Shown one piece after another: positions 45 through 25,582 of a stretch of 64,000 nucleotides of DNA. The notes beneath the pieces are model-generated. The model did no database searches and was not told the DNA's origin. It saw only the letters and a program-made list of their open reading frames with translations. Position numbers and translations under genes: made by a program. The DNA is from Sclerodactyla briareus (Eukaryota; Echinodermata; Holothuroidea; Dendrochirotida; Sclerodactylidae): the NCBI GenBank assembly GCA_026419785.1, contig JAODTK010005873.1, positions 243,744 to 307,743 of the forward strand, given 5' to 3'. Every line of letters begins with the position of its first letter. The first letter of the stretch is position 1.

Positions 45-112
45 AGTAGTAGTAAATTGGGGTACGACCCCATTCACCCAAAAAACCCAAGGTCTCTCTG
101 AAAATAAACTAG
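45..112 (+). repeat. Left terminal inverted repeat of the Polinton
   Basis: Begins AGTAGTAGTAAATTGGGG and continues with a CACCCAAAAAACCCAAGG block and a TCTCTCTGAAAATAA block. Read on the opposite strand, 18038 down to about 17969 shows the same blocks in the same order, with a few substitutions and single-base gaps. Similarity fades after about 66-70 bases. Confidence 0.75.
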
Positions 113-114
113 GG

Positions 115-950
115 GCCCAAGGTCAAATCCAGCGCACTCGTACGTGTGAAACACAATCCTTCGTGTATGTACCTATTGGTATCCAACGGAGAGAGGGCTA
201 CCTTGGTCACATGTGAAGCAAGATGAATGAATCGGGATAAAGGAGGGGTCTTTCATTCTGACATCTATAATCGATTTTACCTGTTACGACTGAATCATAA
301 CTTTGAATCAGCTCTTTGTGTTCACTGAGTTTGCTTGTACAGTTTATCATCTTCTCGTAATACATTACAGAATTTTCTGCGTTGGGAGCCAGGGACAAAT
401 GCAGGGCGATAGGCCAAAAAATACTCGTAAAAATATTGTGATCAGCCAAGATAATAGTACCACCAAAGCCACAAAACAGCTGCAACTGAAGTTTTATGGA
501 CTACTGGCAGGTACGCCTAGTGGCGAGTTCTTGACTGCATACAAAAAATAAGACTGGGGTTTTTGGGCAAATCTGACAGAAGATAATGAACTGTTGGGTA
601 GGTAGACCCATGATGTGAAGCTGTCTGAATTTTCCAAAAGACAAAAATAATAGCCTTTATAATAATAAAATCGACAGTTAGGCAGTCAAAAGAGGCCACC
701 GCGGGGGACACGCATGGTTAGATAGTGCAGGCAATGGGTAGATTCAATGACTGCTGGGGAGGGTTGCTCCCAGACGTGGGTAAAGTTTGACATTCCTCAC
801 CACACATGAAGGTGATTAAGAGGTCCACCTTCCAAACGTCAGCAATTCGTAAGACTTTCTTTCATTTCATGGACTTGGCCCGTTTTTTTGGTAAAAGTAG
901 AAATTCTTCTTGAATGATGCACCATTCCTCCAGAGTTGTGAAATTCACAA
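115..950. other. Polinton interior, unassigned
   Basis: No family was recognised. The minus strand is open for 92 codons at 207-485, with another open stretch in a different frame up to about 711. The overlapping plus strand is open at 303-551. Members of the group often carry an integrase or protease near a terminus, but no zinc-binding, DDE or cysteine-protease motif could be read here. Confidence 0.3.
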
Positions 951-2510
951 ATAGTATTTAGTTTTGACTAAATTCTAATTTCATTATGTTTTTTAGTTTT
1001 AGGTTTTTCAGTGAAAATATTGTTGCCAACACAATAACACCACAGGCTAATAACAACACATTGACCAGAGCAAAATCCAAACGGGTGAAGGAATAGCTCC
1101 ACCCAATAGCGCAATACTGAAGCGCAAGTACAACTCCGCACACCTCTGAAAAGGTTTCTAGTGTAGTTATAGTAGTAATAATTTGTGTTATATTTTTATA
1201 CAGGGAAACTCTTTTATCTCTTCAGCTTCTATTTTTTTTTAAGATCAATCAATTTTCTTGGTCTGAAAGTACCCTCCTTCTGCGGTAAATTCGGATAAAT
1301 GTTTTTTGTAGGCTCCGTCATGATAAGTATCGGTTTATTTTTAAATAGTCGTATGTTTATTTTGTAATACATACCAGATTAGCCCTAAAACTAGGTGCAC
1401 AATAAACATTCATACCCTCATTGGTCGACACAACACAGACCACACAATATGAACATAATGTAGTATCTGAACCATTCATTCGGATCTATAACAATTTTCA
1501 GAGAAATAGTATGGTGTATTATTTGTAAAATCAATTTGTGCAGTAATCCCATTGGTCCTAGTGGGTTTGTATCCATATACCAAACATCATAACATTATGA
1601 TCCACCTAATTCAACTAAACCATAGGCTGTTGATTTAAAATCATCCCAATAATAGTTATCCATGATAGTCATTACAAGAATTGTGTTCCATCAGTATTTG
1701 GTACAATTTTCCCAATGAAGATTTTCCATATTCACTAATCATACTATTCATACTCTCATGGATATTTTGAATATATATTGCAGGTTGCTAATGTATTGGA
1801 ACTGCCAAATATACTAATGTATGGTTAACATTAGTTTATTCTAAAGTAATTATCAGTGGCAGCCTTTATTATTAATATCATTACATCTGAATCTTTGATG
1901 ATGAATTTCATTTCATAGTTATTCCAACGGTTTTTTCAATTTTAGTGCTCCTTTCTGTAGTATGCTACTTATAGTATGGGTCATTAACCCAATTGAATGA
2001 CACCCAACATCTTAGATGGTTTTTCCGTTAAATATATAATTGGTGGAAGATCATTTGATCACAATGTAAATAAATAGCTTTGACTGGTTGCATGTCCACT
2101 TTTCCAATGGGTTCACCATCAAAAAAACCTCTGTCTTAAGTGAAAAAAGTTGCCAATCTCAGAAAACTTAATAGAATATTTTCTGGAACTCAAGTTTCAA
2201 ATTCCATGGTATTTATTGACCCTAATCGCCACCCAAGATAAATCACTGTCTGGTGATCAAATTGCACCAGTCGATCACATTGTAAAGGCCCAGCGGACAA
2301 TGGAAAATTCACAGTAATCACTAACAACCCTATACTTATGTTTTCAACCTTTATGACTTTGTAATAACCATATTCCAAAAATATAGCTGATTTCAACGTC
2401 ATTTGTAAATTTCCGACCTATTGGTATTAGGATTGTGTTCCAAGTCAAATTACTTTTCAAATGTTTCAATTTCATAAGTAGGATTCCATTCATTTAAAAT
2501 ATATGATGTT
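951..2510 (-). pseudogene. Frameshifted minus-strand coding remnant, possibly a capsid gene
   Basis: Reads as protein on the minus strand when frames are followed across several breaks. Near 2480 a frame gives NEWNPTYEIETFEK. It passes into an open 70-codon stretch at 2402-2190, then near 2100-2070 gives AIYLHCDQM, near 1660 gives YYWDDFKSTAYGLVELGG, and near 1590 CYDVWYMDTNPLGPMG. Near 1420 there is NVYCAPSFRANLVC. At 1143-958 a 61-codon frame carries a hydrophobic stretch (VNVLLLACGVIVLATIFSL) that could be a membrane segment of a separate small protein. The beta-rich, aromatic composition and the size (about 350-500 codons) would suit a Polinton structural protein such as the double jelly-roll capsid, but that is inference from family content. 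It could also be an unrelated Polinton gene. Confidence 0.4.
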
Positions 2511-2517
2511 TTAACCA

Positions 2518-3045
2518 ATGAAAATAAAAAACATGTTACCACAGCATTTCAAAGCAATTATTAAAAAGATACAAAGTTTAGTAGTATATTTTCACCACCA
2601 GACAATAAAGAGCCTTGAGCAAAACAAGACCTTGCGAAGTCAAACTATACGTTTATCAAATACTGACACATTTGACATCGATCTACCAAATTTATTTAAA
2701 TTAGGAATACAAACGTCAATTCTGATGAGGTATATAACGATTGGAACTCAAACCGGATGCAATTTTGCAAATAGAACTCAAAACTTTGTAATTGGGAGCA
2801 ACCTCAGGATTGGTGTCAGCTATGACCACCCCCAACATACAGACAGTAGAATCAAAAGTTTCATCGTTTCAGTCTATGATCTGTGTCGAAGGCTGCTAAA
2901 AGCAAGGAGTTGTCCCAACCATTCAAAACTAGACAAATGTCGGGTAAACCGCCGGACGTATATATTCCCCGCATCTATATTCAAGAAATTGGGAACATGG
3001 AACCGACAATATTCGTGGGAAAAAGAAGACATTATTGACTTGTGA
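2518..3045 (+). CDS. 175-codon open frame, unknown; may be antisense shadow
   Basis: Longest unbroken frame in the window, opening with ATG and ending at TGA (3043-3045) at the edge of the satellite array. No signal peptide, membrane segment or known motif is visible. The C-terminal third is rich in Lys and Arg. The opposite strand also has protein-like stretches here (91 codons open at 3149-2874, and GIYTSGGLPDICLVLNGWD in another frame), and the adjoining 0.95-2.5 kb reads on the minus strand. This frame may therefore be only the complement of an upstream part of that gene. Unusually long for such broken sequence, but of unknown function. Confidence 0.3.
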   Translation: MKIKNMLPQHFKAIIKKIQSLVVYFHHQTIKSLEQNKTLRSQTIRLSNTDTFDIDLPNLFKLGIQTSILMRYITIGTQTGCNFANRTQNFVIGSNLRIGVSYDHPQHTDSRIKSFIVSVYDLCRRLLKARSCPNHSKLDKCRVNRRTYIFPASIFKKLGTWNRQYSWEKEDIIDL

Positions 3046-3109
3046 CGCGACAACGTGTATGGTGAAAGGTCATTCAAAGCCCTGTAATCGGGATGGGCAC
3101 CCCATACAG

Positions 3110-5820
3110 CCCCGGCCAAGGGGGTCCCGAAATAAGCACATGTATTCAAGATTCGACCTTAAACCCATGGCCCACCCGAAGAGGTCAAATCAGGGCAGAG
3201 GTCACACACATGCGGTCAACAATTATTATCACAATGGTGAACCAATCAGCCTTCGCAGATATTCAATTCTCCGATATAGCCAAAAAAACCAGTTTTGACC
3301 CCTAAGTGACCTCGAATGACCTTTAATGAATGACAGTTTTATTGAACATTGTTACTCTCCATTGTGATACATCCACTCCCTAGGAGCATTTGAAGTCTGA
3401 TGAACACACCCAGTGCTTATTGCAGAAAAAGTACTAAAATCCGTTTTTGACCCTAAGTGACCTGTAATGACCTTCAATGACATGGAAATTTTTAGGGTGA
3501 AAAATTGTTCACTCCATGTGATGCATCCACTCCTCGAAGATATTGCATTTCATAATGATACAGTCCAAATGTTATTGCGGAAAAAGGGGTATAAAATTGA
3601 ACTTTGACCCTTGTAACTACCAAAGTAACCGATCGAAGCGGGAGTTGTTTTCTCCATCAGCACACGAGCTCTAATCCACATATCCACAAAATAACCAGGT
3701 TCTACTTTTTTGCCCGTAACTCCTTAAATAAGCACAATTTATTCAAGATTAGACCTTTAACCACTTGACAACCCGACAGAGGTCAATTCAGGTCAGAGGT
3801 ACACACATGGAGGCAACAATTATATCACAAGGGTGAAACCATCCAGCTCGCAGATATTCAATTCTCCGATGCTAGCCATTAAAAAAAAAAACATTTTTTG
3901 ACCACTAAGGACCCCGAATGACCTTTAATGAATGACAGGTTTATGAGAATTGTACCTCCATGTGTAAAGCCACTCATAGGAGGCATTTTGCATTCTGATG
4001 TGTGTGTAACACAACCAGGCTATTGCCGAAAAAGTACTAAAATAGTTTTTGACCATAGGGGACCTTTAATGACCTTCAATGGAATGGCGGTTTTTATGAA
4101 AATTGTTACAATCCATGTGATGCATCATCCTAGAAGCATATTGCCATTCCCAATATCACTAATGGATGAACCACCAGCCTTCGCAGATATTCAATTCTCC
4201 GATTATAGCCCCAAACCAGTTTTTGACCCCTAAGTGACCCCCGAATGACCTTAAGATATGAAAGTTTTTATGAGGAATGGCTACTCTCCAAGTGAGACAA
4301 TCACTCCTAGGAGCATTTTGCATTCTGATGGACACCCAGTGCTATTGCAAGAAAAAGTGACTAAATCGTTTTTGACCCCTAAGTGACCTGTAAGACCTTC
4401 AATGACATGGCGGCTTTTGAGTAAAAATTGGTACACTCCATGTTATGCAATCACTCCTAGAAGCATATGCATTCCAATGAAACATGTCCAATGTATTGCG
4501 AGAAAAAGTTAAAATTGAACTTTGACAATTGTAACTACCAAATAAGGTCGATAGAGCGGAGTTGTTCACCTCATAAAGCACCACCAAGCTCTATCACATA
4601 TCCAAAACTAACCAGTTTCTATTTTTTGCCCGTAAGTCCTCAAATAAGCACATTTATTCAGATTCGACCTTTTCAACATGACCCACCGACAGAAGTCCAA
4701 TTCAGGTCAGAGGCCACACACATGGAGGTCAACAATTAGATAACAATGGTGGAAACCATCCGACGTCGCAGATATGCCAATTCTCAGATTATAGCCAAAA
4801 GGACAGTTTTGACCCCAAGGGACCCCGAAGGACCTTTAATGATAGACAGTTTTTATGAGAAATGGTACTCTCCATGGTACTCACTCCTAGGATGCATTTT
4901 GCATTCTGATAACACACCCAGGGCTATTGCCGAAAAAGTACTAAAATCAGTTTTGACCCTAAGGAAACCTGTAATGACCTCACTTGACATGGCGGTTTTT
5001 ATGAAAATTGTTACACTCCATTGATGCCATCCACTCGAGAAGGCTAGGGCATTCCAATGAACATGTCCGATGTAATTGAGAAAAAGGTATGAAACTCATC
5101 ATTTTGACTGATCAGGACACACCACCCCACATATGCAAACTCAGTCCACATTACCTCATGTGATCTGAGCTGAGTGAAAAATTATCAGGCTGGTAGTAGG
5201 TTACCTATTCAATGTTTCGTCAAAATCCCTAAAAGTTGAGAAAAATAATTGCAATATTATTCTAATAAGCTAACGAATATGTAAATTAAACACACATAAT
5301 GACCTACAGTGATTTCAATGCAATTCAATAAATTTATCGGGGGACTGTTAGAAGTCTACTCACAAAGTTTCGTGAGAAATCCAACAAATTTATAAATTTG
5401 CTAATTGCTATTGGGCCAACTATTATGACAATTAGTTAGCACGATAACCTCCAGTGACATCGGCCACATTAGGAAAAATTGTATCGGCAAGATAGTTGCC
5501 CTATCAACCAAGTTCATGAAAATCCAATGAAGTTTCAAATATCACATACATTCTGCAGAATTAGGCTACTTGCCAAAAAGAATGCAAACTTGACCTCGGA
5601 TGCGACCTTGTGAAATGTCACCATGTTTTTCGGCTCAACAACTACCCACAACACACCACACGTTTCGTGAAATCGCACGAACTTGAAAATTTGCGAAAAA
5701 CCTGCAAATAGAGGGCAAACAAATATACGATATAGCCACTTTCGAACTTATCCGAGATTACTCATACGGACTGTGTACCCAGGTTTTGGGTCAATCGGAT
5801 AAACTGTTAAAGAATGAGAA
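3110..5820. repeat. Satellite-like tandem array, about 150-bp period
   Basis: A landmark block (TTTTTGACCCCTAAGTGACC followed by an AATGACCTT block) recurs near 3293, 3448, 3597, 3895, 4047, 4218, 4370, 4518, 4807, 4953 and 5101. Most steps are 146-155 bases or about twice that. Longer units also repeat: the AAATAAGCACA/TTATTCAAGATT block occurs near 3133, 3725 and 4645, and a TTCGCAGATATTCAATTCTCCGA block near 3250, 3850, 4175 and 4765. From about 5200 to 5800 a second motif (GTTTCGTGAAAATC-like) recurs near 5215, 5370, 5510, 5665 and 5785, again about 150 bases apart. Copies differ largely by one-base gaps. Short frames here are not credible genes. Confidence 0.85.
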
Positions 5821-5833
5821 CGCTAACGCCTAA

Positions 5834-5885
5834 AGTTTCCGGCGGCGGCGGCGGCGGCGGAGCCGGCGGCGGCGGAGACGGCGGG
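5834..5885. repeat. GGC-rich simple repeat
   Basis: A run of GGC/GGA trinucleotides, strikingly GC-rich against AT-rich surroundings. Translation gives poly-Gly on plus and poly-Pro on minus. The short frames through it (plus 5814-6086, minus 6043-5807) owe their composition to the repeat and are not treated as genes. Confidence 0.8.
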
Positions 5886-6156
5886 CACAACGGCCAAAAC
5901 CATAATATCCCGAACCATTCAAGGGTTGCGGGGATTATAATCTTAAATGCAATTGAATTAATAATAATAGAAATGTCAGCGTATGGAGGACCTATGTCAT
6001 CGGTTTCATGGTCACAGAAATCAACTGGAAGGCAACACGTCAATACCCATAGTAATTGTTTAGCACTGATTATGCTGGGAATTTAATTTTATTAGACGGT
6101 AATTATGACACTCGTAGTTTACACATACACATGAAGGGTACACAGCTGCAACTGTA
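5886..6156. other. Unassigned spacer
   Basis: AT-rich sequence between the simple repeat and the next open frame. No motif was recognised. Confidence 0.3.
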
Positions 6157-6453
6157 ATGGCTTTTGGTAAAAAGCAACCTCGTACAGCTAGATCCCACAG
6201 TTTCTCAAACTTTCTCAGTAAAACAAGTAGAAGGGCTGGACGGGGTGTCATACCACAATCAGACGGTCTAACAGATATTGGCACGGAGACACTTCAATGT
6301 GTAGGCATGAGAACTTTGTTCTTCATTGTATTTTCAGAGGCACAAACTCAAACAAAAACAAGTATTTCGACACCTGGCACATCTCGAGATGCTAAACGAC
6401 ATGTTGTCTATATTAGAGGATTGCATGAATTCTCCAGTAGATTTACAAAGTAG
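6157..6453 (+). CDS. 98-codon open frame, unknown
   Basis: ATG-initiated frame inside the presumed Polinton. The first 45 residues are basic and Ser/Arg-rich (starts MAFGKKQPRTARSHSFSNF), as seen in small DNA-binding or virion-core proteins, but no family was recognised. The minus strand is also open over much of it (6284-6060). There are no neighbours in the same frame. Could be chance. Confidence 0.2.
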   Translation: MAFGKKQPRTARSHSFSNFLSKTSRRAGRGVIPQSDGLTDIGTETLQCVGMRTLFFIVFSEAQTQTKTSISTPGTSRDAKRHVVYIRGLHEFSSRFTK

Positions 6454-6876
6454 TTGAAATCGTATCAAGCTCACTGCAATTATGACTCGAGCACAAAGTG
6501 ACTTGTAGGCGCCGTAAAATTTAACATGATGCTAAGATCAAAATTGAGGATTGTTACCCATATAGGTTATAATGAAAAAATGAATAATGAAAACTTTCCC
6601 ATTACAGTTGCAATGCTTTTTAGAAGATCTTTAATCGTTGTTTAATACCACCACTCGGGTTGGACCTGGTTTGGGTGGCACAACACTTTAACACCTGCAA
6701 GGATGTATGTAAAAATATGCTAATAGCTAATGCTATAGCAGTTAATTACTCACCCAGGCGCGGCGAAATGTATTTTGTATTGGGGGGTCTAAGTGGCTTG
6801 TTTACTAGCTAAGCGTAGCGCCACCATTGGTTGGCAGCGACGCGGTGCACGAAATTTTTGGGTTTCAGGCCTCTAG

Positions 6877-7128
6877 ATGGCGAAAGCATTTGACGAGTGG
6901 CATGTGCTAGAATATCTAGGCATAAATACAGGTTCATGTGTGAAATTGATGAATACAAGAACAAATCAGAGAGAAAAATGCAATTTGAATAAAGTTTCTA
7001 CAAGTGGAATAAAAAAATGTCACTCCGTACGAGGTATTCATCGATCCAGCCTATTTACATTTAAAACACCCTTTCTAGTATGGTACGTGTTACAGGTTGA
7101 GATGCGCTGTCGTTTCGTGAATGTATAG
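6877..7128 (+). CDS. 83-codon open frame, unknown
   Basis: Starts with ATG after a CG-rich stretch. It contains EWHVLEYLGINTGSCVKLMN and several cysteines, with no zinc-binding spacing that can be read with confidence. It lies within the presumed Polinton. Not recognised; it may be a piece of a broken element gene. Confidence 0.2.
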   Translation: MAKAFDEWHVLEYLGINTGSCVKLMNTRTNQREKCNLNKVSTSGIKKCHSVRGIHRSSLFTFKTPFLVWYVLQVEMRCRFVNV

Positions 7129-9800
7129 ATATGCCCATGTGCATATACTTAAGCATATGTTAAAACAAACATTTGAAATTGCAAAATTTGAAGATTGACC
7201 GACCAAAAGAATTCGTACACTGTGTGGATGAGGGATGTTCCCACCGAAATTTTTATTCTTTAAATTTGGTATGCTCTTTGCTGAAAATATAGCTAACCAA
7301 TTATGGACACACATACATTACGTTTTTCAAAATGGCTCTTCATAATCGTTACTTAATTTTTACATATTCTTAACCATCTGAAGAAGAAGCATGAAGAACC
7401 GGCTGAGTAGGAACATATTTTGTCTTGAATTAATTCGAAATAGTTTCCGCCTTCGGTAATCACGTGACAAGGCATAGTACCAGCGAAATAATAAAAGGAA
7501 TAATACTGCCACCACTGTGTTAAAACGCGTAGCCTATATATACACCGAAGGGTACAATTGTTAAATTCATTTTAATTGAATCTAGACTTGTCATATTTAG
7601 TAGTAAGAATGGCTCTACGTATGACCGAATCGCAACTCGATTGATTTGATTTGATGGCGGTTGCCTGGAGCAGGATTACCAACGGGCTATGGTAATGATG
7701 TGGATATTCGACATATTGTGTGTACTAGGCTACAGTGATGGTTGCCATGGTGAGGAATGCAGAACAAGCCGTGAATATGTCAAACCGATGCGACGAGCAG
7801 TACAGGCCTTCTGCTCACGAGTATCACAGTACGGCCTTACGGGGCCGCAAAGATGCAACTGGTAGATGACTCATAGCTATAAATAGCCTCCAGAGTGCTT
7901 ATTATGATTGATTGGCACTATCAAGAATATTCTTGAAATGTTGAAATATTAATTTAACAATCAGGCGATAGCAATCTAAATACATAAATGAATGTTTTTC
8001 GAACACTCTGCAAATATGGGGGGGGGGGGCCTACACAAGCGTGCCTCCTCCATTTTTTCAATGGGGGGGCTGAGCCCCCAAGGGCCACCCCCCCCCTGGT
8101 TACGCCCCATGCCGCCACACCCCCATATTTACGACCCGGATGGAGGATATCATGCGATTAAATTCAATGATATCATCAGCTAAGCAGGATCCAACTTATC
8201 TAAGAGGGGAGACAAAACACGTTGCTAGACAGCTTTCTCGGACAAGCCCATTGAAACGCACGTCGAAAAAGCGGAACATTTGACGATCATTTGTCGCAAT
8301 TATAGCCCAGGACAGCGCCACTCAGTCGGCGTTATTTTATTTATTTACCGTTTGTTTGGAGGGGGGGGGGGGTAACACCTAACAATGCAGAGGATCATCG
8401 CGGTACTTTCTTTTGATGGTGGGCCCTTTGACTAACTTTCCTTTGCATACAAGCGAGCTTGGCGCAGTGCCATTTGCCGTCTCCATTTTTCGAGGTTAGA
8501 TCATGCTAAAAAGCGTATGATATAACTTAATTTTCATCTGTTTGGGTCCTTCTAGTGTCTACTTACTTCATTTTGTATAACGAACCGATCGCTACAACTG
8601 TCTTGTTATTTTATTCTCTGAATTGGTGGATCGGTAGTGCTCCCCACCGAAAAAGTTGGTAAAAAAAAAAAAAAGAAAAAATTGGGGCTTGTGTAAGCTC
8701 TCACTCACTTCCTCAATCCGGCAAAAACAAAATTGGTTGCTTTTTATACATTTTCTGCTTGAAAAAAATTCTCGCTTAGATTTTCTTAGGGGGCGCGCGC
8801 CGTGGGTGCGCCCCGTGAATCAGCGCCTGTTAAAATAGAAGGCAATGAAATTTATTTACGGATCGAGTCATCTTCTGCAGATGTGTATCACGGCTATAGC
8901 GATTCCTGGTTGCCCGGAGAAGGACATCCACAATATGGCGTACGAGGCCCATTTGTAATTTTTGGGGGAAAAAAATAATACATTGAAATTGAGAGTTGAC
9001 GCTGCGATAAGGACATCAACAACCGATGGTAAAGATAAAGCTATTGCCGATGTATGGGAGGACGATTACCATTCCTCCGGAATTTGAGCGGTGACAATCA
9101 TTATGACCTATTACCGAGCCGCGCCTCTATGACAGTTGAGTTATGATAACATGTAATGATTATGGTCGTGTGATTAAAGGCACAGACACGGCGCTAGTTA
9201 CGAAATGTTATAATGCAGAGATAGCAGAATGAGAGCAACCAGTCTCAAACAAAACTGGCTGTACTTATATGACAGAGTTAATTGAGACACAGAACAATTG
9301 CATTAACAAAAGGATCCACTTGGAATATAATGGAACACCCAGCAAAAAGAATTGAAGGGTATACTAACGGTAGTGCGACCCCATGAGGTGGTGGTAAGTA
9401 TGGTAGAGACCACGTAAATTGTACAATCCAAATCCATAAAGTACCACTACTAGCTAAGGCATTCCGAATCAGGTATGCGCAAAGCATGCAAAGTATCAAC
9501 ATTGGGAGAAATTGAAAACATTCGCAGGTAAGGCATGGGTGAAGAACTGATCATTTGCGGAGAAACTCTGTGGATTTTGTGAAAGAGAAATACGCTCTTT
9601 GGTTGAGACAGAGAAGAGTGATGTAATACAGATCACGGTAGTGGTAGGAGAATTGAATAGTGTGTTCGGGAAGGGTTACTACAATTCGCACTGGAAAAAG
9701 ATTTAGAACTAGGCGGTAACTCTAAATCTGTTAGATTTATGTTGTCGCATGGAGCACAGCTCAATATTAAGAATGGTAGATTTAGTTCAGCCATTTTAAC
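7129..9800. other. Polinton interior, no recognisable gene
   Basis: No frame longer than about 75 codons and no recognised motif. Contents noted: a G/C hairpin at 8012-8130, a 12-base G run near 8360-8372, A-rich runs near 8660-8680, and a phrase at 9700-9775 (SKSVRFMLSHGAQLNIKNG) that resembles half an ankyrin repeat but stands alone. Confidence 0.4.
8012..8130. repeat. Short G/C-run inverted repeat, MITE-like
   Basis: AAATATGGGGG at 8012-8024 is matched by CCCCCATATTT at 8119-8130. Between them lie further G and C runs (8068-8074, 8086-8095) and the phrase GGTTACGCCCC. It could fold into a hairpin about 119 bases long. Similar G-run/C-run pairs occur at 34219-34303 and 37662-37805, so it may belong to a short non-autonomous family. 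Confidence 0.45.
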
Positions 9801-10040
9801 AAAAAAAAAAAAAAAAAAAAAAAATAGCTATAATGATAGAGATATTATATATATATACTATATATATATATAAATTATATATTATATATATATAGATATT
9901 ATATAGATATATATATATATATATCTGTATATATATATATATATATATAATATATCCAAATATATCTATCGTTATTATATCTCATATTTAATATATATAC
10001 TATATATAATATATATCTATATATATATATATATATCTAT

Positions 10041-10071
<31 letters not shown>

Positions 10072-10074
10072 TAG
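9801..10074. repeat. Poly(A) run followed by an AT microsatellite
   Basis: A 24-base A run (9801-9824) is followed by (TA)n with interspersed ATC/GATA steps to 10074. Slippage and sequencing error are likely, so the length is unreliable. Confidence 0.9.
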
Positions 10075-13000
10075 CAATGTTTGTTCCCAACGTATCTCAT
10101 TCGGCACTCGTATGTGGTCAAAACATGGTGGGAAAACAGCGTTTTTGTTAATCTATTATAAATGAATACAAAATTACTAATTTGACCATCGTTATCGATT
10201 CGTCCACGCTAGCAATGGAATAAAGCTTATACAAACAGAGAATGGTCCGGCAAGATTCTGAATTTTATCTCTTGATGCTAACCAAATTACATTACTCTAT
10301 CAAAGATATTACGACGTTTCAAGGTGATGAAACGTATATATCATCATAGATGATTGTGCTGCACTAATGATTTGCATATGAAAACACTAAAGATTCTATA
10401 TGCATGATCAGTGAATTAGCGTTTAATGGTAGACATGCCAATCAATTTGTTGGATTTTGTCAAAAAATATAGTGTTATAAAGATTTAGAGAACAGACGAA
10501 TGTTTGTGTTTATTTTATTGCAAAGATCGTGCTTCATACGACATTACTTGAAAGAAATGATTTCAGTCGGCTAAACACTAGGAGTCAAAATAAATGAAAT
10601 TAAAGGCAAAAAAAAAAAACATTCAAAACCTTCTACTTAAAACAGCGATCAACCTACAACTTACCAAGGGTTGTTCGTTGTTAAGAACTTATCAGGTTTT
10701 GAATAAGAACCTATCAGTTATTGTAATAAGAAGTTACAATGTTATTGTAATAAGACTTATGAGTTTATTGTAATAAGTACCTTGTTTAACCACAATTATC
10801 AGCTTGATCATACATATAATTTCAGGTACAGTATTTATATCAAATACACGAAACCTTATCAATCTTATTTTTGGTAAATATATCTATCCCTCTATAACGT
10901 ACAAACCAATGGATGAAGTTAGCACAACTTTTAACAACACTAAGATGTAGACATTGAATGTGAAGCTGGGAACCAAAAGCTTTGTTGAAATAATAGATTA
11001 GCACATGTCATTAGTGGTGGTGATTTCGTTAAATATTTTTGGAAAACATTATTCCCTTGAAAGTCTCGACTTAGATATTAGAAAAACTTCAAAATTACTT
11101 CGAGATAGAGCGAAAATTTGGCTCATGAAATGATCAGTCATTGGTTCGACATACACTAACAATTTTGTTAATTCTCTATGTATGGATTAGCAGGAATTAA
11201 TGCAGAATTGATGATGTTGAAGCTTTATCGAAAGAATTAGAGAATGAGCACTAGTCTCAAATGCTCATCACATTTTTTGTTGTGAAGCTATATAAATTTT
11301 GGAGTAATCTAGCTCCACGTGCTGCTTTGACTTATAACTGCAAGACATGTTTCCTTTAAAATATAGTGATACCTCATCTAAATGAACCAATTGGAAGAAG
11401 GAACCTCAACAATGAAACAACAGTACTTAAGTACAAAAACAGAAAACCCAGGTAATTTGCTGCAGGAAAAAAACTGCCAACCCAATAGAAACAAAAGGAA
11501 AAAATACTGACCGAACCACAACATCTTCAGATGATGGGTGAAGTTGATTACTTGCCTTACATAAGGTTAACTGCATTTGCAGTTGGAGTGGGTGTTTATT
11601 TATTTATCACAGTTATAAAACTCCCGATGAAACCTAACGTCAATGTAGTGTCTGAAACATTCGACCTTTTCATTTGAATATTATTCAAAAAATAAAGAAT
11701 AATAAAAAATTGTTCAATCAGTACTGATTAGATACGTAAACAAATACTGTTATCACGGGAGCATTGGTTGGGGGGATAATTATTGCATTAGCATGCTTCA
11801 GTAAAATGCTAAAAATATAAACCCGCCGATCTTGGTAACTGGACGTCACGACGGTTTCAAATGACTGCTACAACTGTTAGTCATCACTTACAACACAAGG
11901 ATGTTGGATGAATCAGGGTATACTACGGAGACAGGTAAGAAATTAGAAGGCCAAACGGACTTAGAATAGTTATAAAAATGGGACAACAGGTAGCTATAGC
12001 GGTATTGGTGGGCGATTATAAATGCCGTAGCTTTATTGGTAACAAATTTCTAATTTTCTAATCTAAAAGATGGTTGCAGAGGCTCAAGAATAAAGAAAAA
12101 GGCACGATTGGCTTAGACAACTCATCATAGATAAACAAAATGACTTAGTCGTCGATGAATACTCGTCCATCTGGATTTAATACATGAAATCTAGTGGGGT
12201 TTGGGCGCCAACGTACTGAAGGTGCAACTCAAAGCTGACTGTTTCGAACTACGATCAAGAAGACATAAAATACGTGAGCCGAGTGTGTCTTATGCAGTTA
12301 TCCTCATCATGACTGCGTGAACCATGCTGTGCATTCTACCTGAGAATGCTGGTAAGACGCTATAAGCAGATAGCGAAGAAAGTGTGTAGGTATTCATACT
12401 AAAAGCCACTCACCCAGGCTCGAAAGTCCAATAAAGGTGTCAATATATCTGTCATCAGTTATAATTGGCATGGTGTTGTCGGCATTGCACAGTATGAATT
12501 ACTTAAACAGTAACAACACAGGATTATCAAGAGGATCAAAGAACTGAAATACATTAAAACGGTATACTACTCCTTCTAGAGGTTATTGGAAATAGTGAGG
12601 TGCAGGTACAAAATTAGCAAAAGCCACAAAAGTCCCAAGAAAACGCCAGAGCATGGCATCAAGCAGGCTCAATGTGGCAAATTTACAAAGTCACCGCTCA
12701 AAATATTCCCAGACCAAACAGTGTAAACATTTTTCAATGCATTTCAAAAGATATGCACCAGACAATCTTTTATGTTTACCTCATGATCATCAATTGGTAC
12801 GAAACCTTATAAGTAGCCTTTAAACGTAGTCGACGTAGCCAGTAATACAAAGAAGCCGAAGCACTTAACGGACAAAACTGCAACCCATCATCAGTCGACT
12901 CACTCGAAAGAATCTAGTAAAAGAAGCCTCTGAAGGCGAGCCCTAAAACAATCAAGTAGATCCTGAAAGTCATTTCAATATGAGGGATCCAATACACTCA

Positions 13001-13657
13001 TGCCGTGTAGAAATGGTGTATCATAGTAGCAAGATGTGTAGAAGTCAAGTGGAAACTACTACAGAAGAGCGTCGAGTGGTATGGTAGTAGAACAGCTTCC
13101 CTGATATACACCAACTCATCACAGTAACGCTAGCATGTGATAATGCTAAACGTGTACAGATTATTTTCACAACAATAGTGGCTCAAGAAAGACCTAGATA
13201 GGCTAAAAGTCACAAGCTTTCTGGTAAACAAACAGTTACCAGAGAATTGTTGCGATCAGCATTAACATCATGAAAATAACTCTAGATGTACTAGGCGCCT
13301 GAAAGCCTATTGTGCATAGAGAAAAAATCTGTCGAACAAGATTCAGCTACAACCATTATGTAAAAGAAAGGAAAAATACTGATGGTCGAAGCTTTAGGTA
13401 CATTGTCGGCCCCAGGTTAGGCTGAATTCACGTATCCAGAAAGAGATCACAGACCCATTGAGCTCTGAATATAAAACATCTGGTAATACGACCACTATGC
13501 CTGCACGAGAAGCTGACAGCCAACCGTTATTACTTAGGCAGATGTTATACAAATTATAGCCTTCATCAAGATGACGGATACTGCTAGAGTATACCACCAC
13601 ATTAATCATAATTACCGCCGACACTGGTCTATATGAAATAAAAGTGGTTTTAAATAA
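10075..13657. other. Polinton interior, broken coding, unassigned
   Basis: No frame over 60 codons except an antisense-like 97-codon frame on minus (13687-13394). Some plus-strand stretches look protein-like for 30-50 codons: 10180-10345 (contains LLMLTKLHYSIKDITTFQGD), 11008-11135 (MSLVVVISLNIFGKHYSLE) and 11540-11640, where LTAFAVGVGVYLFITVI could be a membrane segment. Integrase, ATPase and protease signatures were looked for and not found. Repeated frameshifts make this inconclusive. Confidence 0.3.
10680..10790. repeat. Minisatellite, about 23-bp unit, four to five copies
   Basis: Units of the form AAGAACTTATCAGTTATTGTAAT repeat four times with small changes, starting near 10682, 10704, 10727 and 10751 and fading after 10775. 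Non-coding. Confidence 0.75.
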
Positions 13658-13870
13658 ATGAAAGTGGCTATAGCTAATAATGGACATTTTCCTCTGGATT
13701 CAAAGGATCAAAACCGAATGGACCCTTTTAAAAAGACCGAGGGCTATGCGAAGATGATTGTCCACCTGCATAACCGGAAAATAGATTACAATGGTGTGAA
13801 AAATACATGTTCATGGAATGTAGTGGGACATAGTGATAAAAAAGTATCTCAAAGACACTTGCAGTGGTAG
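13658..13870 (+). CDS. 70-codon open frame, possible gene fragment
   Basis: Reads MKVAIANNGHFPLDSKDQ and later NTCSWNVVGHSDKKVSQRHL, with a protein-like composition and no low complexity. It lies within the presumed Polinton, upstream of the polymerase and on the same strand. The upstream frame at about 13560-13640 (FIKMTDTARVYHHINHNY) may belong to it across a stop. No family was recognised. Confidence 0.3.
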   Translation: MKVAIANNGHFPLDSKDQNRMDPFKKTEGYAKMIVHLHNRKIDYNGVKNTCSWNVVGHSDKKVSQRHLQW

Positions 13871-14335
13871 CTAACTGTATCTGAACACAAGAGAGCCATT
13901 CAGTTCGCTAAAAGAGCCTCCCGGCTTGTAAAAAGTTTGGAAGTTTATACAAAAAGTAAACCCTCATTATGTAACAATTGGGGCGTAATAATGCCATGCA
14001 AGCCTCTTTATTATCACGAGAAAAATCTAAAAAACATACAAAAAAAAGTATAAAAGACTTTTGGAAAATTTAGGGAGTAAATATTTTCTAGAATAGCAAT
14101 GCATTTTGGAGAAAAATAATCTAAAAAAAAAAAATCTTGGTGGAAAAAACATGGAAAGAAAATTCTGGAAAAAAAATTGGAAACAGAATTGTTGGAAAAT
14201 TTTAAGGAGTAATATTTTCTATATGTAAAAAAGTGAATATAAAATGGTGAAACGAATGAAATATTACTGAACGATGTAGTCCCTTATCAAATTGACAAGC
14301 TTTTACAGATGAAAGTTGCAATTGAAGTCATATTT
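13871..14335. other. A-rich spacer with a diffuse direct repeat
   Basis: A phrase like TTGGAAAATTTWRGGAGTAA followed by TATTTTCTA occurs near 14062-14090 and again near 14183-14222. The rest is A-rich without a usable frame. Confidence 0.4.
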
Positions 14336-14336
14336 T

Positions 14337-14560
14337 GAACACAATAATATTGGTTTAACAGAGACCCCATCTGGGAAGAGAGGATTCATTAAAACAGATT
14401 ACCTCAAAGCATAGTTGCCCATTAAATCTAATCAGGCAGTTTATAAGGGGGAATCTGCAGATCTGAAATCCGATGTTTAACACAATAATATTGCTTAACC
14501 AGAGACACCATCTGGTAAGAGAGGATTCATTAAAACAGATTACCTCAAAGCCATCATAGG
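14337..14560. repeat. Tandem direct duplication, about 142-bp step
   Basis: The block ACACAATAATATTGG, then GAGAGGATTCATTAAAACAG and ATTACCTCAAAGC, starts near 14339 and again near 14480. The second copy is recognisable for about 82 bases. A 121-codon minus-strand frame (14720-14355) is open across both copies and so repeats CFNESSL. Whether that frame is a gene cannot be decided. Confidence 0.75.
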
Positions 14561-15360
14561 TTGAACACAAGAACTCATATTTGTGATAAAAGTCGGACAT
14601 TGGGTGGTATGCTGAGAACTTGGGTAAGGGATGTGCCAACAATCCACTAAGAGTAGATCCAAATGTTTTTGCAACAATGTACAAGCACAGTAAAAAGAAC
14701 TGATTGAAGATATGATACATTAGGAAGTTTCAAGTGTCACAAATTTTTGAAAATAAACTTCAAAAAGATAAACAAGATGGAACTACTGTTGTTGAGGCGT
14801 TTTTTTTAAAATTATTTTCAAAGTGATTTTAAAACCAGGGTGAATTGAATGCTAAAATACACACAGCAGAATCTGTAATACGCGAACATATTAAACTGGC
14901 CAAATCAAGTTCGGGTTTATAGTCGAAAGAGTTTTAAATTGACTCCTGAACATTAGTAAATTGCCCATTTAAAGGGTGGCCTTACATTGATTTACCTACA
15001 AAATTGACATAAAAAATCTATTATTAAATGTGAAAAATAAAGATGATGCTGTTTTAGGTGGGCCTTAAGAGTTTTCTATTTCCAGTATGTAAACACATAT
15101 ATACCCACAGTTATCCAATAGATGATGTTTAAATTTTGATGATATAAGTTCTCCAACTCCTATTTCACAAAAACCAAAGTAGAAAGACAAACGATTATCT
15201 ATACTGTATTTGTGGGAAGGTGGGCGGTTGTGCCATATCATAATTCGAATCATCTTGAGTACAAAAGAGATTGATTTACTAATGCCAATGATCAAGATAA
15301 TAATATCATTACCATGATAAAAAGTCTCAGCTTTTATTGTACACTTCAAGCAACACAAGA
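14561..15360. other. Region upstream of the polymerase, unassigned
   Basis: It may hold the missing N-terminus of the polymerase or another Polinton gene, but no motif can be read. A 97-codon minus-strand frame at 15358-15065 is most likely a shadow. Confidence 0.3.
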
Positions 15361-17910
15361 GGCAATGTTATCCTTGTCGAAAAAGCCTACAATTTTCTGT
15401 AAGGAGGTCTTCTTGAGGGGTCATCAAGGAAGACTGTAATGGAATTGGAGACAGGCACAAAATTGTAATGCCGTAAGAATGGTGCGTGATAACATAATTA
15501 AATTTCTAAATCAAGCTAGACGGATGAAACTTCCATATGTCATTTATCTGATTTTGAATGTAATCTACGAGATTTCGGGGTGGTGCTTAATCCCCGATAA
15601 ATCAAATACCAGAATAATCCACAAACATGATGTTTTCTAGTTATTGTTACATCATTGTACGATGGCTTGAAAGTTGGTAGCCAAAGGTATACAGAGTACC
15701 AAATGTTTGCGGACATTTTTCTAAAATCCTTGAAAAACCAAAACCTATTGTTATGACATCAGATTTATATGTGAACATGAAGTGCAACACATTGTCATAT
15801 CTTTAAAAAGAATTTTACAGATGGGGAAAGTGGAAAGACCATGTCCGTCACGTAGAATTAGAGGCGCAGCTCACGATACTGTAATCTAAAATAAAAATAC
15901 AACCGGATACAACTGTCATTCCCGTCATTTTTCACATCTTCGGGGTTATGACTCTCAATTATCATGCAAGCTGGTAGTACTTCAAGTGGGAAAATTGGTT
16001 GTATTCCAACAAAAGGAAAAATATTTGTCTTCAACATTGGGCAATTAAGATTTATAGCACCTCCCTTCAATTCCCCCATTCGTCATTAGACATTTGTTAA
16101 GAACACCGATAAAAATGCCTTGAGCATAACTAGGAGATGGTCTCAGAGAGTAATAAAATTGACTTGGTGACTAGAACGTGTGTATATCCATATGATTACA
16201 TGAATAGTCCGGGACCTTTGAGGAAAAATACCGTTCACCTAACGAAGCATTTACAGTTCGTGTGAATTATCCAACCATCACTGATGATTCGTATGACATT
16301 GCCCGAAATGTGTGGAATACTTTTAAATGTGAAAACTCGGGTGAATATCACGATCTATACTTGAAACGATGTGTTGTTATTGGCGTGATTTTTGAGATTT
16401 TAGAAATAATCTTAGAAACGTTCACAAAGCTTTAGTAGATCCTTTTTCTTACTATACTCTCCCCGGTTTTGGTTGGGATGATCTACTTCAACATTCTGAA
16501 ATAGAAGTATGAGTTTACTCACTGATGCGACCACACTTGGTTGTAGAAAGAAAGGTATTAGAGGCGTTATTTCAATGGTTAGTAAGAGGTATGGCAAAAG
16601 CTAATAATAAATACATACCCGAATATATCCTATGTACTCTACCAGTTTTATTCAATATCTATATGCGAATAATCTTTATGGTTGGCTATGAGTCAATACT
16701 TACCAGTCAACGATTTCAAATGGACTGCTGTTACCGAAACCAAATTGGAATAAAACGATTAAACCCGAAACCATATTCTATGTTGGGGTATATTAGAAGT
16801 TGATTTGGATTATCTAAAAATTTTTGCATAATCACATAATGATTATCCTTGGGCTCCAGAAAAAATTTGATTCCCAAAAAGGATTGGTTCTCAGATTTGA
16901 GTGAATTCTTACTAACAATTGTTGGTGAATCACCGCTCCAATATTAAATTAACTCCTAATCTAATGAACAAAGAAAAATTCGCATTATAGGAACTTTCAA
17001 TTGACACCCTGACCGTGGGCCCACGTTGCAAAACTCTCGTATACGGGATTCACCAATCTCCTTGGATGAGTCATCCAAAGATTAAATACAAACTTACTCA
17101 AAGGAGCTAAGAGTGACTTCGAGAAAGACATGTTCAAACTCAAGAACAATGCTGTGTTTGGAACACTTGGAAAATGTTAGTAAAAAGGATCGTGTGGAGT
17201 TGGTTTAAAGCACATGAAATTGAAATCGCAACCTAATGCAAACCCACTTTTTGCTAGTCATAAAATTATTTGCTGATGGATCTAGGTGCTGTGCACATGC
17301 ATAAACAACGACTTTTTTGAATAACCAAGAACTGTAGGTATGGCTATTTTGATCTTAGCAAGTGGTTCATGTATGATTTTTACTACTACAACTTGAAACA
17401 AAAATCATGACAATGTTATTTATTATATACAGATACAGATAGTCTCCATTTTGGAAATTAAAATAAAATATATACTCCTGATATGGTGAAGATAGTAATG
17501 ATGTATTACACTACTAACTACACCACCTTGCAAACAAACACTTCAGGTTCGTCGACATTAATAAAAGTTGTAGGGAAATGAAGATAGTGGAAGGTCTCCA
17601 ATTTTTTTAGTATATCGGTCTAAGACCACAATGTATTCGATACTTAGCTTGAATGATGCTCATAATGCAAGAAGGCAAAGGGTTTGAAGGGTCGGTCACT
17701 AAAAAATAAAGTTTATAACCCATTTAAACTACCACAGAGCACTCTTTGATAAGACAACTTCGTGTGCGGTATGAACCTTTATTGAAGTGAAGGTCCTTTA
17801 ATCTTTAGTCAACATGTGAACAGGGGGATACCCTCTCTCCGTAGATTACCACGAGGTCATACCGAGGATGTGTTCACACAGTGCTAGGGATTTAAGGAGC
17901 CGGGAGGCCA
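15361..17910 (+). pseudogene. Polinton-type family-B DNA polymerase, frameshifted
   Basis: Would copy the element by protein-primed replication. Signatures appear in order across several frames. DFE at 15550-15558 fits exonuclease motif I. A DHV/HVE-type metal-binding stretch lies near 15835-15860, followed by TVIPVIFH near 15915. GEYHDLYLKR is at 16340-16369 and YYTLPGFGWDDLLQH at 16450-16494. AKANNKYIP is at 16594-16620. Motif A, YANNLYGW, is at 16662-16685, and NLMNKEKFAL lies near 16956-16985. DLSKWFMYDFYYYNLK is at 17351-17398 and motif C, YTDTDS, at 17427-17444. LRPKMYSILSLNDAHNA, near 17620-17670, marks the C-terminal region. About 850 codons are covered, against roughly 1000-1200 in the family, so the N-terminus is missing or unread. 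The motif A position normally Asp reads Tyr (tat, 16662-16664). The family is clear; the exact ends are not. Confidence 0.9.
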
Positions 17911-17925
17911 CCAATTTATACATAT

Positions 17926-17997
17926 AAGTATTTTTCAGAGAGAGACGTTGGGTGATTTTGGGTGAACCCAAGTTATTTTCAGACGAGACCTTGGGTG
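17926..17997. repeat. Subterminal direct repeat inside the right terminus
   Basis: A block reading AAGTATTTTTCAGAGAGAGAC then GTTGGGTG (17926-17954) is echoed by AAGTTATTTTCAGACGAGAC then CTTGGGTG (17970-17997), 44 bases apart. Only the outer copy takes part in the clear inverted match with the left end. Confidence 0.6.
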
Positions 17998-18038
17998 ATT
18001 TAGGGTGAAATAGCCAGAACCCCCATTTTACAACTACT
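17969..18038 (-). repeat. Right terminal inverted repeat of the Polinton
   Basis: Read on the minus strand from 18038 it begins AGTAGTTGTAAAATGGGGG and continues with CACCC and GAAAATAAC blocks in the same order as the left end at 45-112. Confidence 0.75.
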
Positions 18039-18499
18039 CATACTTATAATTATGTATGTATGTTTGCATAACGGAGTTTGAGGAATCCATAATCTCTTTC
18101 CCGCTAATGCACCTGATGGTATGTTCCATACCAGTCCAATATCAAGTCTACAAATTAATATCCCCTAAGCTATTTCCTGACCACCACCGAGTTTAGCTAT
18201 GCAGGAATTGGTCCCTCGACAATCCGGAAATTCCCTGTTTCGAAGATATTTTAAATATTTTATGGACTGCCATATTGTATAGTCAGTGACGTAGGATACA
18301 TGCATTCTTACCCCTTTTGAGATTGTCCCGTCCGAGTGTTAAATTTGGTTTATTGCATATCAGGACTTCTTGTTGTCCCCAACTACCAAAAAAGTTCGTT
18401 GGATTGATCGCTGTCCTAAGATCCCGATTCCGGGAACTGCTGTTCAGGTGAAGTCCCACTAGTCTAAAGTCGCGATTTGTGGCATTCTCCCTAGGGTGG
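18039..18499. other. Spacer between Polinton and LINE copy A
   Basis: No recognised gene or repeat. A minus-strand frame (18549-18283, 88 codons) crosses into the LINE ORF1 remnant and is not credible. Confidence 0.4.
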
Positions 18500-18754
18500 G
18501 GGTGTGGGGGGTTTGACGGTCTGTGCAGGTAGGACGATAGCGGTCTCACAGGTGGTTAGATTGTAGAGGCGCTGTGAGGGGCGGTCAGGTTGTGGATGTT
18601 TCGTTTTTCTGGGGAAGGAGTGGTCTTTTCGCTAGGGGGGAAGGGGGGGGGGGGTGGGTTGGGAGGGGGGAGGGGGGGTTTGAGAGGGGAATGGGATGTC
18701 TGGCGAAAAAGGTCACGTAGCGATAATATGTTAGCAGTAGCCATTTTGATGATG

Positions 18755-19500
18755 TGTAGATGTTTAGTCCAGGAACCAACCTGACTCCCTTGGTATGACA
18801 GAGTCGTGGGTTGAACAGTGATCTTTCCACACCGAAGTCACCTTCCTAGGTTATGTTGTTTATAGGCAAGGATAGGATAGATACTCTCCGTGGCACTGGT
18901 GGTGGAGTTTTGTTGTATGTGAGGTCTGACATTTAAAGTTTTGAGAAGGCCGATATTGGTGTGAATTTTGTCAACTCTGTTTGGTGTGAGATTCCGTCGA
19001 ACTCTCTGGTATTCCCAGTTCTTTTTAGTGGGCGTTGTGGTACCGTTTCTCCAAATAGCTCTGAGACACACCTCTGCTTTTCCGACAGGCTTTCGAAGTT
19101 TCTGGGAAGAGTACAATTATTATGGTTGATTTCCACTTATCCAGATCTTTTCTTGGTCTATTGGTATAGTGGCAGTCATGGATCTGGCCTTTATTTCAAT
19201 GTCACGCGGATTGTTTTCCTTCTCAGCATATTTTTTCTACAAAGACATAATATTTTGGATTTATTTGGAGCATGATCCAGATTCTGTATATATGTAGAGA
19301 TCTGGGTAAGCTCGGTGCAAGTGATCACGATATGTTTAGCCTTCAATGTGTCTTGTTTATGTCAGTATCGCCACAGAGTGTAGAGCTTGTTCCTTCTTTC
19401 GCGAAGGCCAATGTCGATTGCATTTCCAGGTTTTTTAGCGAGGTGGATGGTATAAATTGTTGGAAGGACGAATGCGTCGCCTCTTGGGATGGTTTTCATT
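18755..19500 (+). pseudogene. LINE copy A endonuclease domain
   Basis: Apurinic-like endonuclease that nicks target DNA. The 104-codon frame at 18961-19275 contains NSVWCEIPSNSLVFPVLF and LSKFLGRVQLLWLI. The next frame (19272-19502) carries GASDHDMFSLQ near 19316-19345, the C-terminal SDHD signature of this enzyme class. Upstream, VVEFCCM/LLYVRSD-like wording near 18905-18930 matches copy C (GGGVLVYVRS). At least three frame changes. Confidence 0.75.
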
Positions 19501-19999
19501 GAAAATGTTACCGAGGGTGTTATGAGAGTTTACCTTCCTTGGAGGAAACGGTCGCAAGTAAGAACATGGGCCTTTTTTGGATGAAAATGGAAGTTTTTCT
19601 GGCCATGAAACGTAAGCGACATTTATCGCGACTTTATCGTTCTTCTGGGTCAGTGTCTGAGCTTGAGCATTTCAAAGTTCAGCAAAGCTTCCACGTTTAG
19701 TTTCTGGGTGCTAAACTTGGTGATTTTGAGAGCAGATTGCCTCTAATAGTCAGAGAAAGCCTCGTGCATTCTCTCTTATGTGAGGGGGAAGCAGAAGTCA
19801 GGACGCATTGGTCCCTTCACTAGAGGTCCGACTCGGGTAGTACAATCAGCGATAGCCAGGCTATTGGCTAAGGTTCTAATAATTATTTCTCTCTTTTTAC
19901 TCATGAGAACTGGATAATTTTGGTGACCTAGATGTCGGGGTTTCTCCGCTAGATTGAAATATGGTTTGTTCGCCTGGTTTAGTAAAGGAGAAACTGCAG

Positions 20000-20800
20000 A
20001 AGAGCAAAGTGAAACCCTGGTCCTGACGGATTTTTATCCTTTCTTAACTAAATCCTTTGCCGACGAGTTGTCGGCTCCCTTAGCTATTATTTTCACTGAG
20101 ACTCTGCAGAAGTATTGTTCCGGATGATTGGAGGAGAGCAAATTTTTCTCTTATTTTCAAGAAAGTGTAAACGGTCTCTTCCTTGTAATTACTGCCAGTC
20201 AGTCTTACTATTGTGTCTGCCAAGGTAATGGAATAATCATTCTGGATCATATGGGTTATTTTTTAATGAGCATAGTCTGATTAGGGTTTCTCAGCATGGG
20301 TTAAGGAAGAATCGTTTCGTGTTTTCACTAATCTCTTGGGATTTATGGAAGAAGTTTACATGTTCTGTTGACACGGCAATGCTGTTGATATATTTTCCGG
20401 ACTGCAGAAGCTTTTGACAAGTTTCCCCATACGCCTCTGCTCAAGTTGTGAAAGCTTTGGGCCTTGAGGGGAATTTCCCGTAAGTGGATTCGTGAGTGGC
20501 TTCATACTATGGAAAAACGAGTTGTCATTAATGGGCGGTCGTCTTCTGTGCAAAAGGTCACTAGTGGTGATTCAAAAAGCAGACCCAGGGATCCGGTTCT
20601 CGTGGCCATTACTTTTTCTGACGTATATTGTCGATCTTGAAGGTTCTGTTCTCTCCAGGGTGAGAAGTTCGCAGACGAATACCAAGTTTTCAGGGAGGTC
20701 GTGTTCGAATGATGAGTGCTGCGAATTTTCAAAGGGCTCTGGATATAATTTCCAAATGTCTTCCGACTGTCAAATGTTTTTTCATGTCGCCAGTGCACGT
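20000..20800 (+). pseudogene. LINE copy A reverse transcriptase core
   Basis: NPGPDGF near 20010-20032, KRSLPCNY near 20170-20195, EAFDKFPHTPLLKL near 20410-20450, then REWLHTMEKRVVINGRSSSV near 20490-20550. The YxDD-box region near 20665-20690 reads FADE, so the second Asp is lost or misread. The order and wording match copies C and D. Frameshifts separate each block. Confidence 0.75.
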
Positions 20801-21570
20801 TATCTGTTGTGTTTTCACAATCGCAACGCTTTCTTCAGTTAAATGGCCAAAATATTCAGGTGGTGATTTCAGAAAGAGATCTTGTGGTTTGTTTGGATTC
20901 TCTTTTGAAACCTTCCAAGCAGTAGTTGCCCGAATCTGCATAAGAGGTAATTGGATGTCTTGGCTTGATTATAGACGTCACTTCATTTCCTTGATCATAT
21001 ATTGTTGTCAGGCTTTTTAAGCAACTGGCGAGACCGCACCTTGAATTTCTTTACACGTGTGGAATCCTTACTTGGTCCAAAGACAAGCATGTTTTTGAAA
21101 AACGTTTCAGCGTCGGGCAACAGAATATCACTGTCTGAAGAATTTTTCCTACGAGGACTAGGTCTAAGGTGCTTCTCGGTCTAACTACCATGGAGCTGAG
21201 GCGAATTCGGGGTGACTTGAGCCAGGTGGTCAAAATTTTCCATTGACTCGATGGCCTTTCCTTCCCTACTTCTTTGAATTTCCAAATTTTAATAAATAAG
21301 TCCCACTGTTCAAGCTCGTGGCAAGCGCTGCAGTTGGCCTTCGTAATAAAATTTTTTCTTCTCGCAGAGAGTGGATCCTAGAGTGGAATTGTCTTCCTGT
21401 AAATTTTGTTCTCTCTAAGAGTTAATTCGTTCAAGAACGTCTTGATTTATTGTTCGAGAATCACGGGCGAATTAAAAAAATTTTAGAGTTTTGGTTCATT
21501 TTCTGTCCTGAAAGTGTGGCTCCGGGGTCGTTGATGAGGATTAGTCCTTCCTTACCCTTATTCATAAACA
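20800..21570 (+). pseudogene. LINE copy A C-terminal region and 3' end
   Basis: Contains LLKPSKQ, VRLFKQLARPHLEF (near 21010-21050) and TTMELRRIRGDLSQVVKIF (near 21187-21243), the C-terminal pattern of CR1/Jockey-type elements. The nucleotide block from ATGGAGCTGAGGCG on is shared with copies B, C and D. Confidence 0.75.
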
Positions 21571-21580
21571 CCTAACCTAC

Positions 21581-23225: not shown

Positions 23226-23368
23226 TCTCGCCGCAACTCTGAAAATGTAACAGCTTCAATGTATTCGGACGACGAACTGCGGACTTGCCTAATCTCTCAA
23301 TTAACCGTGTTTCATTGAAAGCTCACACCGACAAATTCTTGTCTTGAGTTGGGTAGAAGAATGGACCA

Positions 23369-25570: not shown

Positions 25571-25582
25571 GAACTCACTTAG

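What the first reader, a model, noticed from the sequence alone, without database searches (positions are those of the whole stretch)
45..18038. An 18-kb Polinton/Maverick with both inverted ends and its polymerase
The inverted repeat opening AGTAGT at 45 and closing at 18038 encloses a Polinton-type family-B DNA polymerase placed just inside the right end. Together these outline a whole element rather than a fragment. Such elements blur into adintoviruses, so a nearly complete locus is informative even if damaged.
Basis: partly seen in the sequence, partly recalled or inferred. Interest (0 to 1): 0.75.

Follow-up and report, generated by a model that had tools for sequence, protein, structure and literature searches.

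The report
Polinton/Maverick mobile element copy
This is one copy of a virus-like mobile element of the known Polinton/Maverick kind, with both ends and its own DNA polymerase gene, one of several dozen copies in its genome, and it is ordinary apart from details of its ends and the noisy assembly.

Summary
Confirmed, and ordinary. The inverted repeat is real: 45-228 pairs with 17797-18038 (core score 66; best of 50 shuffles 32). Its outer ends, AGTAGT and ACTACT, are the commonest end motif of vertebrate Mavericks (PMC8097293). A Polinton-type PolB lies on the + strand: all 120 listed of 367 relatives match 15395-17896. The last PolB codons run into the right repeat and recur in the left one. 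The genome search scored 40 places for the left end and 40 for the polymerase, lower bounds; 11 pair on one contig in the same order, the window included. Window 2929-5938 is absent from 13 of 13 copies that span it, and about 480 bp at 367-849 from 15 of 17. The window copy shows no target-site duplication. Integrase, protease and capsid were not found, but the Pfam test also missed the polymerase. The frameshifts need not be decay: copies differ by nearly as many gaps as mismatches, with transversions in excess, and host actin genes change frame too. New member of a known kind.

The parts
45..228 (+). left terminal inverted repeat, outer end AGTAGT
   Evidence: boundary shared by other copies
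160..219 (-). piece resembling the PolB C-terminus (P0001 residues 563-582) inside the left repeat
   Evidence: 65% identity over 20 residues, E 3.7e-6 in a search of the two repeats only; not reported at E 1e-3 in the whole window
367..849 (.). about 480 bp not present in 15 of 17 copies that reach both sides; the other two have longer DNA there
   Evidence: some junctions printed
850..2928 (.). block shared with other copies of the family; no gene recognised
2929..5938 (.). about 3.0 kb extra DNA, absent from 13 of 13 copies that span the point; holds a degenerate tandem array at about 3130-5090
   Evidence: array
5939..6758 (.). block shared with other copies
8828..9810 (.). block shared with other copies
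10130..10440 (+). candidate packaging ATPase: GGKT piece (10130), DDCAA (10349), LAFNGRHA (10416), in two frames
   Evidence: motif level only, family label recalled, no profile match over cut-off
14169..17966 (+). polymerase-side block, collinear with the C2018 copy
15395..17896 (+). family-B DNA polymerase of Polinton type, broken over three frames; last codons lie inside the right repeat
17797..18038 (+). right terminal inverted repeat, outer end ACTACT; about 60 nt longer than the left arm, mainly by a second copy of a short unit

Best explanation
A single Polinton/Maverick (endogenous polintovirus) copy of about 14.5 kb, enlarged to 17,994 bp by at least two pieces of extra DNA, and belonging to a family of several dozen copies in this genome (probably an animal's; inferred from coral-like polymerase relatives and actin exons). 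Shown: paired inverted ends with the Maverick end motif, a Polinton-type PolB, collinear copies with the same boundaries. Inferred from the known biology of the family, not shown: the linear element was copied from its ends by its protein-primed polymerase, an integrase (not found here) placed copies at scattered sites, and the inverted repeats, which include the last codons of the polymerase gene, are the replication origins and integration ends. Whether this copy or the family can still move or make particles is not known.
For: Inverted repeat above chance. End motif (AGT)2//(ACT)2, and size and repeat length within the ranges given for intact vertebrate Mavericks, 12,723-24,620 bp and 46-1,447 bp (PMC8097293, section 7 read). 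PolB match of 120 of 120 listed relatives; of 5 that I scanned, 2 have DNA_pol_B_2 and 4 Endonuclease_7 over cut-off, and the closest, P0001, has neither. 40 scored places for the left end and 40 for the polymerase, of 125 and 87 candidates; 11 pairs in the expected order and distance, the window included, and 3 arms lying 68-122 bp past a polymerase end. Exact AGTAGT at the boundary in 12 of 17 left ends read, with flanks that differ by eye. Of 10 right ends looked at in other copies, 4 have exact AGTAGT in inverse orientation, 3 near forms, and 3 were unclear or not located.
Against: No 6-bp target-site duplication at the window copy: best match of the flanks is 2 of 6. Integrase, protease and capsid genes not recognised, although that test also missed the polymerase. 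PolB points outward to the end, whereas most vertebrate Mavericks have both modules pointing inward. Most of the 40 left-end places could not be paired with a polymerase.
Confidence: 0.93

Rival explanations
1. The frame breaks are mostly errors of the assembly, not decay, so the copy may be less damaged than it looks.
For: In 9 of 9 comparisons copies of the family differ by about as many gap openings as mismatches (ratio 0.89-1.07) with transitions to transversions of 0.35-0.54; a 2.6-kb tandem pair elsewhere in the window gives 1.76 and 0.20. Five actin exon comparisons of the same genome give gap ratios of 0.07-0.24 and transitions to transversions of 0.83-2.1, yet the actin matches on C1260 and C2792 themselves change frame between neighbouring stretches.
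Against: With a heavier gap cost the ratio for the polymerase block falls to 0.50, transversions still in excess. The 88-bp pair at 14323/14464 has 2 gap openings and none of one base. Actin breaks are rarer than those in the element, and the broken actin matches could be pseudogenes. The polymerase keeps one frame for some 50 residues in places.
Confidence: 0.65
2. A genuinely decayed fossil, as is usual: PMC8097293 reports 96% of vertebrate Maverick loci eroded.
For: Frame breaks throughout, extra DNA of about 480 bp and 3.0 kb, no target-site duplication; passage.
Against: The error-like spectrum of differences between copies.
Confidence: 0.35
3. The two end blocks are unrelated dispersed repeats that happen to flank a stray polymerase fragment.
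For: The end sequence matches 40 scored places, most not paired with a scored polymerase; no duplication of the target site at the window copy.
Against: 11 of 40 places have the polymerase on the same strand at 11.1-17.7 kb; the inner repeat codes for the PolB tail; the C2018 copy has the same order of blocks between two ends.
Confidence: 0.03
4. It is better called an endogenous adintovirus than a transposon.
For: All names shown among the listed relatives are of Montipora corals, and a Stylophora coral adintovirus is treated together with polinton polymerases in PMC11071308 (passages).
Against: Integrase and virion genes that would place it were not identified; no labelled reference polymerases were at hand for a tree.
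Confidence: 0.3

Closest known systems
Vertebrate Mavericks with (AGT)2//(ACT)2 ends (PMC8097293)
   Same: End motif, overall size and length of the inverted repeats
   Different: PolB points outward; no target-site duplication seen in the window copy; other core genes not recognised
Coral (Montipora) Polinton-type PolB proteins
   Same: The polymerase matches them between 15395 and 17896; the named rows have 71-75% identity over the 55-residue probe taken from the C2018 copy
Adintoviruses
   Same: Same broad group with PolB (recalled; cited in PMC11071308)
   Different: Not testable here without integrase and capsid genes; the defining paper is not held

Membership tests
Polinton/Maverick | terminal inverted repeats | tested here: met
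Polinton/Maverick | conserved 6-bp end motif | tested here: met
   AGTAGT/ACTACT; motif from PMC8097293; exact in 12 of 17 left ends of other copies
[quoted passage not shown]
   for the polymerase; protein priming itself not tested
Polinton/Maverick | size about 12.7-24.6 kb | tested here: met
   17,994 bp, about 14.5 kb without the extra DNA
Polinton/Maverick | 6-bp target-site duplication | tested here: not met
   window flanks match 2 of 6; over 10 elements, small shifts allowed, 3 own pairs reach 5 or 6 against 2 of 90 foreign pairs, one of the 3 lying in a TACA repeat; C2459 left out because its right end was not located
Polinton/Maverick | retrovirus-like integrase | tested here: inconclusive
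   no Pfam match in six frames, but the same test missed PolB; genome search for PF00665 not answered
Polinton/Maverick | packaging ATPase | tested here: inconclusive
   GKT, DDCAA and LAF.GRHA pieces in the window and partly in 3 other copies; no profile match over cut-off
Polinton/Maverick | cysteine protease, major and minor capsid proteins | tested here: inconclusive
   no match, test without power
Polinton/Maverick | multiple dispersed copies with the same boundaries | tested here: met
Adintovirus | position in a polymerase/integrase/capsid tree with adintoviruses | not testable with these tools
   no labelled references in the collections reached

The most novel reading that the evidence does not exclude
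A recently expanded Maverick family, probably of an invertebrate, whose apparent ruin is largely sequencing error, and in which the inverted repeats carry the last codons of the polymerase gene at both ends, so that the tail of the replication gene and the replication origin are one sequence kept alike by copying of the ends.
Probability: 0.3. Interest if true: 0.45.

Novelty: new member of a known kind. Interest (0 to 1): 0.3.

Why it matters
It adds a well-delimited multi-copy Polinton/Maverick family, probably outside vertebrates, with the vertebrate-type end motif. It also warns that in noisy assemblies profile searches miss such elements (one PF03175 match in the genome, which has no DNA match to the element, against 40 scored polymerase places by DNA) and that frameshifts there should not be read as decay.

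Tried and rejected
Pfam over six frames of the window element with X at each stop gave nothing at E 1, and pieces around the polymerase nothing at E 10; since the polymerase is there, this test has no power and absence of other genes means little. Pieces of other copies gave only weak matches under cut-off: Borrelia_orfD E 0.017 for the ATPase candidate, ICAM_N and DUF7602 about E 0.04, and the PDB one match at E 1.1; I take these as chance. In IMG/VR one stretch encoded a relative of a polymerase piece but no locus was returned; pattern searches of IMG/VR and GTDB contigs gave loci (49 in all) whose open frames hold no clear relative of the element (two family-B polymerases match only around DTDS at E 0.11 and 0.14). 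Two protein searches with window pieces gave no hit; the third, with a better preserved piece of the C2018 copy, gave 367. Counting open-frame length per strand over the copies did not separate coding strands. A 10-bp direct repeat, AACCATTCAA at 2917-2926 and 5913-5922, looked like a duplication flanking the 3-kb insert, but comparison with uninterrupted copies puts the right junction a little further on, so I did not claim it. The Endonuclease_7 domain of the homologues was not shown on its own in the window. Papers: PMC8097293 passages and section 7; PMC11071308 and PMC6431247 passages; all others search listings only.

Full report
Observation. The window is C3116:243744-307743 of an unnamed 319.5-Mb genome in 3171 contigs. 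AGTAGT begins at 45 and ACTACT ends at 18038. The two ends are inverted copies: 73-227 pairs with 17798-17966 at score 66 against a maximum of 32 in 50 base shuffles, and with the outer parts the arms are 184 and 242 nt, 136 of 154 aligned letters alike with 23 gap openings. The right arm is about 60 nt longer.

Polymerase. Three-frame reading shows pieces of a family-B polymerase on the + strand. A protein search with a 55-residue piece from the collinear copy on C2018 found 367 proteins at E 1 or better, of which 120 were listed; all names shown are of Montipora corals, and many rows carry PF03175 (DNA_pol_B_2) or PF02945 (Endonuclease_7). Of five that I scanned, two have the first and four the second over cut-off; the closest, P0001, has neither. 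All 120 match the window, only between 15395 and 17896, with best E per protein from 5e-38 to 1.3e-9. PolB proteins with inserted homing-endonuclease domains are known from polintons (PMC11071308, passage), so that feature of the homologues is not new.

The polymerase tail and the repeats. The last part of the 597-residue homologue P0001 matches inside the right repeat (residues 547-593) and, on the other strand, inside the left repeat (residues 563-582, 65% identity). The E-values, 8e-7 and 3.7e-6, are for a search of the two repeats alone; at E 1e-3 in the whole window the left match is not reported. The tail of P0001 also matches 11 of the 20 loci fetched, 17 of which hold a left end, with E 3e-14 to 0.005. 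I conclude that the inner half of the inverted repeat is polymerase 3' coding sequence. I did not search the literature for whether this is known in other Mavericks.

A family with fixed ends. The left end was scored at 40 places (125 candidates, 44 matches) and the polymerase DNA at 40 (87 candidates, 46 matches), the window included; both are lower bounds. In 11 of the 40 left-end places, the window included, a polymerase lies on the same strand 11.1-17.7 kb on, and 3 further arms lie 68-122 bp past a polymerase end. The rest are not so paired; several lie on short contigs, and on C628, C1564 and C2477 scored polymerases lie in other arrangements. Of 17 left ends read, 12 have an exact AGTAGT at the boundary and the sequences outside differ by eye. 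Of 10 right ends of paired copies, 4 have it exactly, 3 (C1636, C3005, C3065) nearly, and 3 (C1327, C821, C2459) were unclear or not located. Compared with these copies the window has about 480 bp extra at 367-849 (15 of 17 copies that reach both sides lack it; L062 and L071 have longer DNA there) and about 3.0 kb extra at 2929-5938 (13 of 13 copies that span the point lack it). Without them the element would be about 14.5 kb.

Target site. Intact vertebrate Mavericks have 6-bp duplications (PMC8097293, passage). The window flanks match 2 of 6. Over ten elements including the window, small shifts allowed, own flank pairs reach 5 or 6 matches in 3 of 10 cases and foreign pairs in 2 of 90; one of the 3 (C821) lies in a TACA repeat, where a match is trivial; C2459 was left out. 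So the feature is at best weakly visible in the family and absent in this copy.

Other genes. Around 10130-10440 the window has a GGKT piece, DDCAA and LAFNGRHA; L065 has GGKT, DCAA and LAFSGRHA, L090 GKTGCGKT and DDCAA, L089 only CGKTEFVL. I read this as the packaging ATPase from recalled motifs; profile and PDB searches do not confirm it. Integrase, protease and capsids were not recognised; the profile test is uninformative because it misses the polymerase as well.

Noise or decay. Nine of nine comparisons between copies gave gap-to-mismatch ratios of 0.89-1.07 and transitions to transversions of 0.35-0.54; with a heavier gap cost the polymerase block gives 0.50 and still 152 transitions to 336 transversions. 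A 2.6-kb tandem pair in the window, unrelated to the element, gave 1.76 and 25 to 127; other repeat pairs in the window gave 1.05-1.80, except a short 88-bp pair with 0.29 and no single-base gap. Five actin exon comparisons gave ratios of 0.07-0.24 and transitions to transversions of 0.83-2.1, but neighbouring actin stretches on C1260 and on C2792 lie in different frames and one on C1260 holds a TGA, unless those are pseudogenes. I conclude that indel error is widespread in this assembly and probably worst in repeats; how much true decay underlies it cannot be said.

Mechanism. By established knowledge of the family, such elements replicate linear DNA from protein-primed ends and integrate by a retrovirus-like integrase; here only the ends and the polymerase are shown, and the rest is inference. 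Name: Polinton/Maverick, confidence 0.93; adintovirus status open.

Noticed in passing
23226-25818 and 25832-28390: Two head-to-tail copies of 2.6 kb that differ mainly by single-base gaps and transversions; a recent duplication or an assembly artefact.
   Followed up: partly
18413-21591 and 54305-57588, with partial copies at 48505-48899 and 58764-60813: An inverted pair of a further dispersed repeat, starting 375 bp outside the right end of the element.
   Followed up: no
L078 (C1756:139567-139674): The only PF03175 match in the genome search is a different family-B polymerase with no DNA match to the element.
   Followed up: partly
C628:186489-197070 (partly L061): Rearranged copies close together: a left end next to an inverted inner piece, and two polymerase places.
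   Followed up: no
3130-5090: Degenerate tandem array with a unit of about 0.9 kb inside the 3-kb insert.
   Followed up: no
14323-14410 and 14464-14551: An 88-bp direct duplication in the polymerase-side block.
   Followed up: no
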